From assembly GCF_002102355.1 (NCBI RefSeq), contig NZ_LQPT01000002.1, positions 20,481 to 84,480 of the forward strand: 64,000 nucleotides of DNA, in the 5' to 3' direction. How positions within the stretch are numbered: position 1 is the stretch's first letter; the number at the start of each line of letters is the position of its first letter. Of the stretch, positions 1,672 to 5,534 are shown piece by piece. This DNA comes from Mycobacterium sherrisii. Lineage in GTDB: Bacteria; Actinomycetota; Actinomycetes; Mycobacteriales; Mycobacteriaceae. A program made the position numbers and the translations under genes. The notes below the pieces were generated by a model. The model saw only the letters and a list, made by a program, of their open reading frames with translations, was not told where the DNA came from and searched no databases.

Positions 1672-1716
1672 TTGCGTCGATTAGCTGATCGAACTATAGT
1701 CTGGACACATGTCCAG
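1672..1716 (+). promoter_or_regulatory. Promoter with overlapping palindromic operator for the glycosyltransferase cassette
   Basis: A TTGCGT (-35, 1672-1677) and TATAGT (-10, 1695-1700) are separated by 17 nt. Immediately downstream, covering the expected transcription start, is CTGGACA-CA-TGTCCAG (1701-1716), an inverted repeat with 7-bp arms. A repressor bound there would block initiation. The regulator is not identifiable in the window. The first gene starts at 1802. Confidence 0.6.
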
Positions 1717-1801
1717 TTTGCTGTCACGGAGTTCGGGAGCCCGTTGATCGCAATGGATTCGGCGCCCTCCGCGTTCCTTGACCAGCAAAGAAGAGTTGAG
1801 T

Positions 1802-3055
1802 ATGCGAATTGCCTTGCTGTCCTACCGTAGTAAGACCCATTGCGGCGGGCAGGGCGTCTACATACGACATCTCAGCCACGGTCTGGTGGAACTCGGTCAC
1901 GAGGTCGAGGTGTTTTCCGGGCAGCCCTACCCGGAGCTACTCGATCCGCGGGTGCGCTTGACCGAGGTGCCCAGCCTCGACATGTACCGCGAGCCGGACC
2001 CGTTCCGGATCCCCCGGCCCAGCGAAATCCGCGACACCATCGACCTGCGGGAACTGCTGACGGTGTGGACCGCCGGCTTCCCCGAGCCGCGGACATTCAC
2101 GCTGCGTGTCGCGCGGCTGTTGGCCGACCGGGCCGGCGATTTCGACGTCGTCCACGACAACCAAAGTCTGGGCACCGGATTGCTGACCGTCGCCGCCACC
2201 GGGATGCCCGTGGTTGCCACGGTGCACCACCCGATCACGCGTGATCGGGTGCTCGACGTCGCCGCCGCGAAATGGTGGCGAAAACCGTTGGTGCGACGGT
2301 GGTATGGCTTCCTGGACATGCAGCAGCAGGTGGCCCGTCAAATTCCGGACCTGTTGACGGTGTCGTCGTCGTCGGCCGCCGACATCATCTCCGACTTCTC
2401 CGTCTCGCCGGATCAACTGCACGTGGTGCCGCTGGGCGTCAATACCGAACTGTTCAAACCGGGTTCGGGGCCCCGGCAACCCGGCCGCGTGATCGCGATC
2501 GCCAGTGCCGATACCCCGTTGAAAGGCGTCAGCACTCTGCTGCACGCCGTCGCCAAAACGCGGATGAACCGCGACGTCGAGCTGCGACTGGTCGCCAAGG
2601 TGGAGCCCAACGGTCCCACCCACAAACTCATCGCCGAACTGGGAATCTCCGACATCGTGCACGTCACCAGCGGGCTGTCCGATGCCGAGCTGGCCGCGTT
2701 GTTCGCCTCGGCGGAGGTGGCCTGCATTCCCTCGCTTTACGAAGGGTTTTCGCTGCCGGCGGTGGAAGCGATGTCCAGCGGCACCCCGATCGTGGCAAGC
2801 CGGGTCGGTGCGCTACCCGAAGTGCTGGGCACCGACGGCGCGTGCGCCGAGCTGGTGCCCCCCGCCGACGTCGACGCGCTGACCCGGGCCCTCGGCGAAC
2901 TGCTCGACTCACCGGAGAAGCGCCGCAGCCTGGGGAAGGCGGGTCGGGCGCGTGCGGTCGACGTGTTCAGCTGGGAGGCGGTGGCCGCGCAGACGGTACG
3001 GGTCTACGAGCGGGCAATCGCACGAAAGGCCGCCGAGAGCGACCGGCAATGCTGA
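1802..3055 (+). CDS. GT4-family glycosyltransferase
   Basis: This 417-residue retaining glycosyltransferase has the GT-B two-Rossmann fold. The N-terminal acceptor domain carries a glycine turn (CGGQGVY, about residues 14-20). The C-terminal nucleotide-sugar domain has the PLKG lysine (K241) and the E-x7-E pair (E314/E322) of EGFSLPAVEA. PimA and MshA are distant relatives. Donor and acceptor are unknown. I chose the ATG at 1802; a TTG at 1778 would add 8 residues but has no better ribosome site. The stop codon overlaps the start of the following methyltransferase (ATGCTGA), so the two are translationally coupled. It is the first gene of the cassette. Confidence 0.93.
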   Translation: MRIALLSYRSKTHCGGQGVYIRHLSHGLVELGHEVEVFSGQPYPELLDPRVRLTEVPSLDMYREPDPFRIPRPSEIRDTIDLRELLTVWTAGFPEPRTFTLRVARLLADRAGDFDVVHDNQSLGTGLLTVAATGMPVVATVHHPITRDRVLDVAAAKWWRKPLVRRWYGFLDMQQQVARQIPDLLTVSSSSAADIISDFSVSPDQLHVVPLGVNTELFKPGSGPRQPGRVIAIASADTPLKGVSTLLHAVAKTRMNRDVELRLVAKVEPNGPTHKLIAELGISDIVHVTSGLSDAELAALFASAEVACIPSLYEGFSLPAVEAMSSGTPIVASRVGALPEVLGTDGACAELVPPADVDALTRALGELLDSPEKRRSLGKAGRARAVDVFSWEAVAAQTVRVYERAIARKAAESDRQC

Positions 3056-3807
3056 CAGTCGATTTCGATCGGCTCGCCATCGGGCCGGGCACCAAGGTCA
3101 TCGACGTCGGCTGCGGAGCAGGCAGGCACGCGTACGAGGCATACCGGCGCGGTGCCGACGTCATCGCGTTCGACCGCGACGAAGCGGAACTGCGATCGGT
3201 GGACACCGTGTTGCAGGCAATGGCCGAAAACGGTGAGGTCCCCGCGGCCGCCTCGGCAAAGACCGTCGTCGGCGATGCGTTGCGGCTGCCGTATGCCGAC
3301 GAGACATTCGACTGCGTCATCGCGTCGGAAATCCTCGAACACGTCACCCAGGACGACGCCGCGATCGCGGAGCTGATCCGGGTCCTCAGGGGCGGCGGCA
3401 CCCTGGTGGTCACGGTGCCGCGCTGGCTCCCCGAACAAGTGTGCTGGCTGCTTTCGGACGAATACCACGCCAACCCCGGCGGGCACATCCGCATCTACCG
3501 GGCCAGCGAACTGCGGGACAAGATCGCGCGCACCGGCTTGCAGCTGGCGCATGCCCACCATGCGCACGCGTTGCATTCGCCATTTTGGTGGTTGAAATGT
3601 GCTGTCGGCGTGGACAATACCGACCATCCGGGGGTGGCCGCCTATCACAAGGTACTGGTGTGGGACCTGATGCGGCGCCCGAAGCTCACCCGGATCGCCG
3701 AGTCGGTGCTTAATCCGGTGGTCGGCAAGAGCGTCGCCATGTACTTCACCAAGCCGTCGACGGCATCGGCCGAGGCAACGCAGGGGTATTCCGTTGCGTC
3801 GATCTAA
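3049..3807 (+). CDS. Class I SAM-dependent methyltransferase of the glycosyltransferase cassette
   Basis: A 252-residue protein with a Methyltransf_11-type core. Motif I is VIDVGCGAGRHAYEA (about residues 15-29), an acidic residue ends the second strand (FDRDE), and the post-motif I segment is DETFDCVIASEILEHV. The ATG at 3049 overlaps the glycosyltransferase stop by 7 nt. The C-terminal half (HIRIYRASELRDKI, HSPFWWLKCAVG) resembles methyltransferases acting on sugar- or polyprenol-linked intermediates, but I cannot name the substrate. Its end overlaps the start of the toroid protein by 14 nt. Confidence 0.92.
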   Translation: MLTVDFDRLAIGPGTKVIDVGCGAGRHAYEAYRRGADVIAFDRDEAELRSVDTVLQAMAENGEVPAAASAKTVVGDALRLPYADETFDCVIASEILEHVTQDDAAIAELIRVLRGGGTLVVTVPRWLPEQVCWLLSDEYHANPGGHIRIYRASELRDKIARTGLQLAHAHHAHALHSPFWWLKCAVGVDNTDHPGVAAYHKVLVWDLMRRPKLTRIAESVLNPVVGKSVAMYFTKPSTASAEATQGYSVASI

Positions 3808-4870
3808 CGCGCCGGCAGTTGCGGGTGTCCTCAGTCCGGAGCAGTGTCGCCAGACAGCCCTGTCCATCGCCGCCGCCCAAGAATCCTCGGGTGCCCTGCC
3901 CTGGTTCGAGGGTGGTCACACCGACCCCTGGGATCACGTCGAATCGGCCATGGCGCTCACCGCCGCGGGATTGCTCGAGCCCGCCCGCGCTGCCTTCGAC
4001 TGGAGTCGGCGGACCCAGCGGGCCGACGGGTCCTGGCCGCTGCAGCTGCGTTCCGGAAAGATCGAAGACGCCAACAGCGACAGCAACTTCTGCGCGTACA
4101 TCGCGACCGGGGTGTGGCATTACGCGCTGGTCACCGGCGATCACTCGTTTGCTGAGTCGATGTGGCCGGTCGTGCGCAAAGCGATCGACTTCGTCATCGA
4201 CCTCCAAGTCGGATATGGCGAAATCTGTTGGGCCCGAAGCGAATCCGGGCCCGTGCCGGAAGCCTTGCGCACCGGGTGTGCCAGCGTGTACCACAGCATT
4301 CGGTGCGCCCTGGCGCTTGCGGCGCTGGTGGACGATCCGCAGCCGGAGTGGGAACTCGCGTTGGGGCGCCTGGGCCATGCGCTCGTCGCGCATCCCGAAG
4401 CGTTCACCGAAAAAGACCGCTATTCCATGGATTGGTACTACCCCATCCTCGGCAGTGCGCTGCGCGGCCCGGCGGCCGCCGCGCGCATCAAACAACGCTG
4501 GAACGACTTCGTCGTCAACGGTCTCGGCATTCGGTGCGTGGACGACCGGCCGTGGGTCACCGGTGCGGAGACCTGTGAGCTGGTCATGGCGCTCGAGGCG
4601 ATGGGTCAACGGTCCGCCGCGCGAGCGCAGTTCGCGGCGATGCAGCACCTGCGCGAGGGCGACGGATCCTATTGGACCGGTTTGGTGTTCGCCGACGGTA
4701 AACGCTGGCCCGAAGAGCGCACCACGTGGACGGGCGCGGCGGTGATTCTGGCCGCCGACGCGCTGTCGGACACCACCGGCGGTGCGGGCATTTTTCGCGG
4801 CGAGCAGCTCCCGATTGGTTTGCAGAACGACTTCGACTGCGAGTGCGTCGTTACCAGGCCGGGCCGCTGA
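3794..4870 (+). CDS. Alpha-toroid protein (annotated elsewhere as prenyltransferase/squalene-cyclase-like), function unknown
   Basis: A 358-residue all-helical protein. Internal repeats resemble the QW motif of terpene cyclases and toroid enzymes ([11 protein letters not shown], about 75-85; [10 protein letters not shown] near the C-terminus). The conserved acidic and aromatic segments DPWDHVE and DANSDSNFC also recall six-hairpin glycosidases. It has no signal peptide or membrane helix. The start is TTG at 3794, inside the methyltransferase gene; no better start with a ribosome site follows soon. It overlaps the convergent methyltransferase by 20 nt. Possible roles are a glycosidase-like or polyprenyl-binding partner of the glycosyltransferase; this is inference only. 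Confidence 0.82.
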
Positions 4871-5534
4871 CCTCGATCGGCTCGCCCACCTGACCGGCGG
4901 TGCGCTCGAGCACCCGCAGCGACCCCGTCGCGGAGATCTCCTGGAACTGACCGGATTCCAGGGCCCGGCAATAGATGTGGAACGGCGGTCGGCCACCGTC
5001 GGCGGGATCGGGAAAGACGTCGTGGATGACGAGGGCTCCGCCGACAGTCACCCATCTCGCCCATCCGTTGAAGTCTTCGGTGGCCGCGGTCTCGGAGTGG
5101 CCACCGTCGATGAACAAGAACTGCAGCGGCGTCCGCCAGCCCCGCGCCACCAGCGGCGACTTGCCCACGATCGCCACCACGTGGTCGTCCAGCCCGGCGG
5201 CGTCAAGCGTGCGACGAAACGTCGGCAGCGTGTCGAACAGCCCAGTCACCTCGTCGACCAACGAGGCGTCGTGATACTCCCAGCCGGCCTGGTGTTCCTC
5301 GGAGCCGTGGTGATGGTCGACGGTGTAGAGCACGGCCCCGGTCTGTTGCGCCGCCGCGCCGAGCAGCACGGTGGATTTGCCGCAGTAGGTACCGATCTCG
5401 ACGCCGACCCCGCCGGCGAGGTACCGCTGCGCCGCGTCGTAGAGCGCGCGGCCCTCGCCGTCGGGCATGAACCCCGTTACCCGTTCGGCCAGCGCAAACA
5501 GGCGCTCGGATGCGCTCTTGTCGGTGTGACTCAT
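4851..5534 (-). CDS. Class I SAM-dependent methyltransferase (Methyltransf_24/CmcI-like), convergent member of the cassette
   Basis: A 227-residue protein with motif [20 protein letters not shown] (about 43-61), an HHHGSE segment, FLFIDGGHS (metal/substrate-side DGGH motif) and VIHDVF. This pattern is typical of TylF/CmcI-like O-methyltransferases that use a divalent metal. The start is ATG at 5532-5534. The 3' end overlaps the toroid gene by 20 nt, so expression of this convergent partner could affect the other strand. The same four families appear together in other actinobacteria as I recall, which suggests one pathway. Confidence 0.9.

What the first reader, a model, noticed from the sequence alone, without database searches (positions are those of the whole stretch)
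1672..5534. Four-gene cassette GT4 / methyltransferase / alpha-toroid / CmcI-like methyltransferase
Three genes are interlocked (ATGCTGA overlap, then a 14-nt overlap with a TTG start) and the fourth faces them with a 20-nt overlap. They have their own promoter and operator. One glycosyltransferase, two different methyltransferases and an enzyme-like toroid protein together suggest dedicated synthesis or trimming of a methylated glycoconjugate. Known mycobacterial clusters (GPL, MMP, MGLP, mycothiol) do not match this gene set. I recall the same four families together in other actinobacteria but know of no described product.
Basis: partly seen in the sequence, partly recalled or inferred. Interest (0 to 1): 0.72.

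Follow-up and report, generated by a model that had tools for sequence, protein, structure and literature searches.

The report
Known methylmannose polysaccharide gene cluster
These four genes are the already described cluster with which many non-tuberculous mycobacteria make and recycle methylmannose polysaccharide; what may be new is a conserved DNA switch in front of it that looks like the target of a family of TetR regulators.

Summary
Gene by gene this is the published four-gene methylmannose polysaccharide (MMP) cluster, in the published order: manT (1802-3055), pmeT3 (3049-3807), mmpH (3794-4870), meT1 (4851-5534, minus strand). The "toroid" protein matches the solved MMP hydrolase MmpH (7qsj, E 4.6e-185), the glycosyltransferase 7qsg (4.1e-214), the CmcI-like protein 6g7d (1e-110). 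All 21 MmpH and ManT residues checked from the paper are present.

The "own promoter and operator" holds and leads further. The palindrome CTGGACACATGTCCAG (1701-1716) abuts a conserved -10 box; its core lies upstream of manT in 32 of 32 named mycobacterial loci holding manT. In fast-grower-type mycobacteria and 12 of 22 Nocardia loci a fifth gene, a TetR regulator unmentioned in the paper's main text, lies beside meT1, usually with the same motif in the gap. The window's lineage lacks this gene but keeps the operator; its genome's only other exact copy sits on the start codon of an Rv0767c-type TetR. I predict TetR control of MMP synthesis, possibly shared with an oxidation regulon; untested.

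The parts
1672..1700 (+). manT promoter, predicted: TTGCGT at 1672-1677, 17-nt spacer, TATAGT at 1695-1700
   Evidence: TTGCG and AACTATAGT mostly conserved in 47 aligned upstream regions while the rest of the leader diverges (exceptions such as AACTAAGG in L034 and AATTAAGG in L098); below threshold in the formal sigma-70 scan
1701..1716 (.). operator palindrome CTGGACACATGTCCAG, predicted TetR-subfamily target just after the -10 box
1802..3055 (+). [quoted passage not shown]
   Evidence: 7qsg E 4.1e-214; 10 of 10 residues taken from the paper present
3049..3807 (+). pmeT3, putative MMP 3-O-methyltransferase (class I SAM)
   Evidence: Pfam Methyltransf_11; position and order as published; no specific solved relative by sequence; predicted fold (mean pLDDT 89.5) is nearest to small-molecule and sugar O-methyltransferases TleD, AtmM and RebM, TM-scores about 0.6
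3794..4870 (+). mmpH, MMP hydrolase, (alpha/alpha)6 endomannosidase
   Evidence: 7qsj E 4.6e-185; 11 of 11 residues taken from the paper present
4851..5534 (-). meT1, MMP 1-O-methyltransferase (CmcI-like, Methyltransf_24)
   Evidence: 6g7d/6g80/6h40 E 1e-110; position as published

Best explanation
The cassette is the methylmannose polysaccharide (MMP) cluster. MmpH cuts mature MMP (11-14 units) internally into 4-5-mers and 7-8-mers; ManT extends these with alpha-(1->4)-mannose from GDP-mannose; pMeT3 (by inference) 3-O-methylates the added units; MeT1 caps the free reducing end with a 1-O-methyl group, so old chains prime new ones. These steps, the pMeT3 step excepted, are reported in the literature for M. 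hassiacum enzymes and mycobacterial MMP, and are inferred here by orthology. The stated confidence is for this identity. My extension, untested at the bench: manT-pmeT3-mmpH is controlled at the palindrome 1701-1716 by a TetR-family protein of one subfamily (about 0.7). In fast-grower-type relatives that protein is encoded beside meT1. In the window's lineage, which lacks that gene, the likeliest reader of the site is the Rv0767c-type TetR encoded elsewhere in the same genome (about 0.45).
For: Identity: near full-length matches to 7qsj named MmpH, 7qsg and 6g7d. Published gene tags MHAS_04402-04405 = ManT, pMeT3, MmpH, MeT1, the same order here. 21 of 21 residues checked are present. 68 of 80 fetched relatives hold all four in this order and orientation. 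In 20 of 20 mmpH-negative congeneric genomes examined (of 55 negatives) ManT, MeT1 and pMeT3 were not found either; MeT1 was found in 19 of 20 mmpH-positive ones. Regulation: conserved promoter/palindrome block; exact core upstream of manT in 32 of 32 named mycobacterial loci with manT, 35 exact cores in 33 loci (533 kb) against 0-2 in five simulated sequences; a TetR gene next to meT1 in 13 of 13 fast-grower-like genomes and 0 of 6 slow-grower-like ones; the core at the start codon of the Rv0767c-type TetR, exact in 17 of 19 loci, one mismatch in one and about 64 bases upstream in one; helix ATAYTYFSSK in 32 of 32 cluster-type and 19 of 19 Rv0767c-type proteins; the cluster-type TetR in 0 of 20 mmpH-negative genomes.
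Against: No product was measured in this organism. pMeT3 is still called putative in the paper read. That 6g7d is MeT1 is recalled; its PDB name is generic and the 2019 paper is not held. Regulation: no binding or expression data; the link is by shared motif and position; the published Rv0767c and motif-X logos are figures, not held. Exceptions: three of 18 genomes have one mismatch in the manT core (G004, G009, G018), as has L034; the gap site is exact in only 8 of 13; in the 12 Nocardia loci with the adjacent gene no core with at most one mismatch was seen upstream of manT; 5 of 22 Nocardia loci and all but one weak hit (L040, 26%) among the other genera lack the TetR in the DNA held. In slow-grower types no exact core lies near meT1. 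The motif is common to several TetR paralogues, so which one acts on manT is open.
Confidence: 0.96

Rival explanations
1. The cluster makes a related but different methylated mannan in this lineage (other length, acetylation or methyl pattern), as Streptomyces griseus does with acetylated MMP.
For: Enzyme specificity was measured on M. hassiacum proteins; S. griseus makes an acetylated form (figure legend). The 80 fetched relatives span several genera, down to 58% identity.
Against: MmpH is 82-91% identical to that of the slow-grower-type relatives; all substrate-site residues checked are those of M. hassiacum; M. avium, another slow grower, makes MMP structurally similar to that of M. smegmatis.
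Confidence: 0.07
2. A novel glycoconjugate pathway unrelated to MMP.
For: Pfam and NCBIfam give no family above cut-off for the toroid protein.
Against: Near full-length matches to solved MMP enzymes, published gene order, joint absence of the four genes.
Confidence: 0.01
3. The palindrome is not a TetR operator but a transcript hairpin or attenuator, or the site of an unrelated regulator.
For: The scanner lists 1701-1716 as a terminator-like stem.
Against: The following TTT is not kept in most fast-grower-type relatives, where AG or AA follows; the same core recurs at start codons of TetR genes of one subfamily, which fits autoregulation rather than attenuation.
Confidence: 0.15
4. In the window's lineage the operator is a relic: the dedicated TetR was lost and nothing reads the site.
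For: No TetR relative in the DNA held of the 27 named slow-grower-type loci (L025 ends before meT1); the own genome has only the Rv0767c-type TetR, one 51% paralogue and two weak hits.
Against: The palindrome arms are intact in the slow-grower-type manT promoters aligned, except one outer base in L021, while leader bases further on vary, which argues for continued selection.
Confidence: 0.15

Closest known systems
MMP biosynthesis cluster of M. hassiacum and other mycobacteria (meT1, mmpH, pmeT3, manT; PMC9883506)
   Same: Same four genes and order; same residues at the 21 sites checked.
   Different: The TetR gene found beside meT1 in fast-grower-type relatives is missing here. The paper's main text holds none of the words promoter, palindrom-, regulator, transcription or operator.
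Rv0767c-type TetR regulon (motif X of Mycobacterium sp. VKM Ac-1817D, G155_05115; PMC6593523)
   Same: A TetR gene with a palindromic site near its start codon; in this genome it lies beside P450 and aldehyde dehydrogenase genes, and the window's operator has the same 14 bases.
   Different: The paper links motif X to phytosterol response; the words glycosyl, methyltransferase and mannos do not occur in its main text. Its Additional file 3, which lists the 14 operons and three TetR genes, was not seen and might include the MMP locus. The meT1-linked TetR forms a separate set in the tree.
GH15 / GH125 (alpha/alpha)6 glycosidases
   Same: Fold and position of the catalytic base, as reported for MmpH by the paper.
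   Different: The window protein scores far below curated cut-offs; MmpH is endo-acting on MMP, the GH125 relatives are exo-acting.

Membership tests
MMP biosynthesis cluster | ManT orthologue with the GT4 donor-site and catalytic residues (H142, K240, E313, E321 and six others) | tested here: met
MMP biosynthesis cluster | MmpH orthologue with D47, D50, E262, W315 and the seven further site residues | tested here: met
MMP biosynthesis cluster | MeT1 orthologue convergent with mmpH | tested here: met
   that 6g7d is MeT1 is recalled
MMP biosynthesis cluster | pMeT3 between manT and mmpH, acting as 3-O-methyltransferase | tested here: inconclusive
   position and SAM-methyltransferase family met, predicted fold near small-molecule and sugar O-methyltransferases at TM about 0.6; activity called only very likely in the paper
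MMP biosynthesis cluster | MMP present in the organism | not testable with these tools
   needs extraction and mass spectrometry
GH15-type amylase or glucodextranase | score above a curated cut-off | tested here: not met
   TIGR01577 42.4 of 820.7 bits; TIGR01535 16.5 of 741.9; Pfam PF17389 13.4 of 24.5
Mycothiol MshA | TIGR03449 cut-off | tested here: not met
   P0001 120 of 462.5 bits
Mycofactocin MftM methyltransferase | NF041255 cut-off | tested here: not met
   P0002 42.8 of 200 bits
TetR-subfamily operator (GGACANNTGTCC) | same core at the start of TetR genes of the subfamily | tested here: met
   Rv0767c-type: exact core in the locus 19 of 19, at the start codon 17 exact, one with one mismatch, one about 64 bases upstream; meT1-linked: 13 of 13 genomes with at most 2 mismatches, 8 exact
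TetR-subfamily operator (GGACANNTGTCC) | agreement with the published Rv0767c / motif-X logo | not testable with these tools
   logos are figures, not held; the text says only that Rv0767c sites are enriched for GAC and GTC and that motif X lies near the start codon
TetR-subfamily operator (GGACANNTGTCC) | physical binding | not testable with these tools
   needs gel shift or chromatin immunoprecipitation

The most novel reading that the evidence does not exclude
MMP synthesis is governed by a TetR switch that I found in no paper read. In fast-growing-type mycobacteria a dedicated TetR gene beside meT1 works through two GGACANNTGTCC operators, at the manT and the meT1/tetR promoters. In the slow-growing-type lineage of the window the local repressor is gone and the manT operator has been handed over to the Rv0767c-type TetR, which also sits on P450 and aldehyde dehydrogenase genes. 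MMP production would then be wired to lipid or sterol-side-chain oxidation.
Probability: 0.45. Interest if true: 0.5.

Novelty: already known. Interest (0 to 1): 0.32.

Why it matters
Naming the cassette removes a false lead and says that this genome should make MMP, a cytoplasmic polysaccharide proposed to manage fatty-acyl chains and linked to growth in the cold. The predicted TetR/operator pair matters because the paper read describes the enzymes but no regulation, and I found no paper on what induces MMP. If a lipid- or sterol-responsive TetR controls it, the physiological role of MMP becomes directly testable.

Tried and rejected
Rejected: mycothiol, mycofactocin and glycogen-synthase assignments (scores far below cut-offs); terpene cyclase or GH127 for the toroid protein (no such family listed); LexA for the palindrome (its recalled box has GAAC/GTTC arms); terminator (tail not conserved).

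No close solved relative of the meT1-linked TetR (best 4.5e-10 to 3he0, residues 21-88 only). Genes filling longer mmpH-meT1 gaps in eight outlier loci gave no pattern. Two extra sites in other genomes (L085, L095) lie by genes without a visible tie to MMP. Paper searches on MMP: 12 of 12 listed; 1; 14; 1; 20 of 36 listed; its term tetr also matches words such as tetramannoside, so it is a weak test; on Rv0767c: 14 of 14; 2. No title or abstract shown reports regulation of the MMP cluster; supplementary files were not read.

Named and unnamed sets overlap at least once (L149 of G023 equals part of L019). The 80 loci are the best 80 of 593 confirmed, so close relatives dominate. L034 (a MAG labelled Acidobacteria, with mycobacterium-like genes) and L001 (the window's own copy) were left out of the 33-locus count; L023 lacks manT in the DNA held. 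Only 20 of 55 mmpH-negative genomes (two of them under 90% complete) were given. A same-search positive control was run for MeT1 only; ManT and pMeT3 of mmpH-positive genomes were seen in fetched regions (ManT in 18 of 19, the other cut off; pMeT3 in 19 of 19).
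Full report
The observation. The four ORFs, the ATGCTGA overlap, the 14-nt overlap with a TTG start and the 20-nt facing overlap are present as described. The window lies at G000:C2:20481-84480 of a 5.56-Mb genome in 128 contigs; its nearest relatives in the named collection are Mycobacterium species.

What it is. The toroid protein matches PDB 7qsj, whose depositors call it methylmannose polysaccharide hydrolase (MmpH), over residues 6-354 at E 4.6e-185. The glycosyltransferase matches 7qsg over residues 1-411 at E 4.1e-214; its PDB name is D-inositol 3-phosphate glycosyltransferase, and that it is the M. 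hassiacum ManT structure described in PMC9883506 is my inference. The CmcI-like protein matches 6g7d/6g80/6h40 at E 1e-110; that these are MeT1 is recalled, since the 2019 paper is not held. The Methyltransf_11 protein has only general methyltransferase hits. PMC9883506 (outline, introduction, parts 1 and 2 of 4 of the results, sections 12, 14 and 15, discussion, section 18, and passages) describes a four-gene MMP cluster with M. hassiacum tags 04402 ManT, 04403 pMeT3, 04404 MmpH and 04405 MeT1, the same order as here. I checked 11 MmpH and 10 ManT residues discussed there, with the numbering offset taken from the alignments; they include residues whose replacement reduced or abolished activity. 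All 21 are present.

How it works. According to that paper MmpH cuts MMP internally, ManT elongates the fragments from GDP-mannose, MeT1 caps free reducing ends, and pMeT3 is very likely the missing 3-O-methyltransferase; an M. smegmatis mmpH mutant made no MMP and grew more slowly at 15 C. The paper reports the cluster in slow growers too and MMP in M. avium. By orthology the same pathway is expected here. The predicted structure of pMeT3 (mean pLDDT 89.5) is a SAM-dependent methyltransferase whose nearest solved structures include TleD and the methyltransferases AtmM and RebM, TM-score about 0.6; AtmM is deposited as a D-glucose O-methyltransferase. This is compatible with a sugar O-methyltransferase but does not prove it.

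Recurrence. In the 80 loci fetched with MmpH (the best 80 of 593 confirmed), 68 of 80 hold manT, pmeT3 and mmpH on one strand and meT1 on the other strand beyond them, in some with other genes or up to about 7 kb between mmpH and meT1. Of the other 12, seven lack a meT1 hit in the DNA held, three lack a manT hit, and two have meT1 in another place or orientation (whose counter also includes the window's own copy). mmpH is found in 242 of 297 congeneric genomes at E 1e-50. In 20 of the 55 genomes without it, ManT (E 1e-60), MeT1 (E 1e-10) and pMeT3 (E 1e-30) were found in 0 of 20 each. MeT1 was found in 19 of 20 mmpH-positive genomes; the exception, G281, has the weakest single mmpH match among these 20 (2.6e-111).

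The operator. CTGGACACATGTCCAG lies at 1701-1716. An alignment of 47 upstream regions (33 slow-grower type, 14 fast-grower type, recounted) shows TTGCG, AACTATAGT and the palindrome largely conserved while the rest of the leader diverges between the types; exceptions are a changed -10 block in L034 and L098 and single arm changes in L021 and L034. In 33 named mycobacterial loci (533 kb) there are 35 exact GGACANNTGTCC cores: 32 upstream of manT (32 of 32 loci with manT) and 3 in the gap between meT1 and tetR; five simulated sequences of the same dinucleotide make-up gave 0-2. In 18 of 18 unnamed mmpH-positive genomes with manT in the fetched stretch, a core with at most one mismatch lies 38-116 bases upstream of manT, exact in 15. 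The 16-base form occurs in 16 of 20 such genomes, once in 15 and twice in one; in 14 it is the manT site, in G072 it lies at tetR/meT1, in G162 elsewhere. The own genome has two exact TGGACANNTGTCCA: here and at C28:122477.

The second site and a fifth gene. The C28 site overlaps the GTG start of a TetR gene between a P450 and an aldehyde dehydrogenase gene, with another GGACAACTGTCC before the latter. This layout I recall as that of Rv0766c-Rv0769; the order cyp123, Rv0767c, aldA, Rv0769 is seen in a table passage of PMC10470581. Searching 20 mmpH-positive genomes with this TetR gave a match of 68-85% identity in 18 and, in 13, a 42-50% relative directly beside meT1 and pointing away from it. 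All 13 are the fast-grower-like genomes; the 6 slow-grower-like ones have none there, and G281 has no match. The same gene lies beside meT1 in 6 of 6 named fast-grower-type loci (L027-L032), in L034, and in 12 of 22 Nocardia loci; in 5 further Nocardia loci a relative lies about 3 kb upstream of manT, and in 5 none is seen. It is not found in the DNA held of the 27 slow-grower-type loci (L025 ends before meT1), nor, apart from a 26% hit in L040, in the other genera. A tree puts the meT1-linked TetRs of mycobacteria and Nocardia, with the 5 distant Nocardia ones, on one side of a branch with 100/100 support and the Rv0767c-type plus a third set on the other. The tool warned that the third set and the cluster type are long branches that meet, and support for the Rv0767c-type set itself is modest (79/87). 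The gap between meT1 and tetR holds a core with at most two mismatches in 13 of 13 genomes, exact in 8, and with at most one mismatch in 11 of the 12 adjacent Nocardia loci. Near meT1 of slow-grower types there is no exact core; one-mismatch sites occur in L002, L009 and L026 and in G006 and G045. The helix ATAYTYFSSK, which I take from general knowledge of TetR proteins to be the recognition helix, is the same in 32 of 32 cluster-type (the distant Nocardia ones included) and 19 of 19 Rv0767c-type proteins; the third set has ASAYTYF(S/P)SK. Rv0767c-type loci hold an exact core in 19 of 19; at the start codon itself it is exact in 17, has one mismatch in L100 and lies about 64 bases upstream in L113. 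Of 20 mmpH-negative genomes none has the meT1-linked type: 16 of 20 have an Rv0767c-type gene, each with a core of at most one mismatch at or within about 40 bases of the start of the match, one of these 16 also has a third-set gene, and 4 have no match. So the meT1-linked TetR goes with the cluster in what was examined, and the motif belongs to the wider TetR subfamily.

What this suggests. A dedicated TetR may control MMP genes in fast-grower types. In the window's lineage that gene is gone, yet the operator is kept; the best remaining candidate is the Rv0767c-type TetR, whose own gene carries the identical 14 bases, and a 51% paralogue at C84 is the next. PMC6593523 (one section and passages) ties a palindrome similar to the Rv0767c motif, motif X, to 14 operons, 12 of them induced more than 3-fold by phytosterol, including aldehyde and alcohol dehydrogenases, P450s and three TetR genes. 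Its main text does not mention mannose, glycosyl or methyltransferase genes, but its operon list was not seen and could contain the MMP locus. PMC10312376 (passages) says Rv0767c sites are enriched for GAC and GTC, which fits. PMC4482099 (one passage) lists a motif for Rv0767c without letters. Binding and function are unproven.

Verdict. The cassette is known. The regulatory layer is a bench-testable prediction that I found in none of the text read, nor in the titles and abstracts listed.

Noticed in passing
L027-L032, L034, L117, L122-L128; L035-L038, L042, L047, L050, L064, L066-L068, L071: A TetR gene beside meT1 and pointing away from it, a fifth gene of the MMP locus in fast-grower-type mycobacteria and 12 of 22 Nocardia loci, not found in the window's lineage.
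   Followed up: yes
L082:4346-4984 (G000:C28:121848-122480): Rv0767c-type TetR whose GTG start codon lies inside the same palindrome core as the manT operator; a second core lies upstream of the neighbouring aldehyde dehydrogenase.
   Followed up: yes
L049, L051, L063 (Rhodococcus), upstream of manT: A different palindrome, CCGGTATC-(4-5 nt)-GATACCGG, lies roughly 150-185 bases upstream of manT in 3 of 5 Rhodococcus loci (the manT start of L051 is extrapolated), so other genera may use another regulator.
   Followed up: no
L139:4797-5770: Two minus-strand genes, which look like a toxin-antitoxin pair by eye, sit between mmpH and meT1 in one genome.
   Followed up: no
L095:395-1642: In G162 the 16-base operator lies at an alcohol-dehydrogenase-like ORF (named by eye); the manT site of that genome differs by one outer base.
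   Followed up: partly
window 752-1351 (-), 5656-6348 (+), 8030-8833 (+): Neighbours of the cluster hold a GMC oxidoreductase, a cutinase and a GH16 domain by Pfam; no link to MMP is evident.
   Followed up: partly
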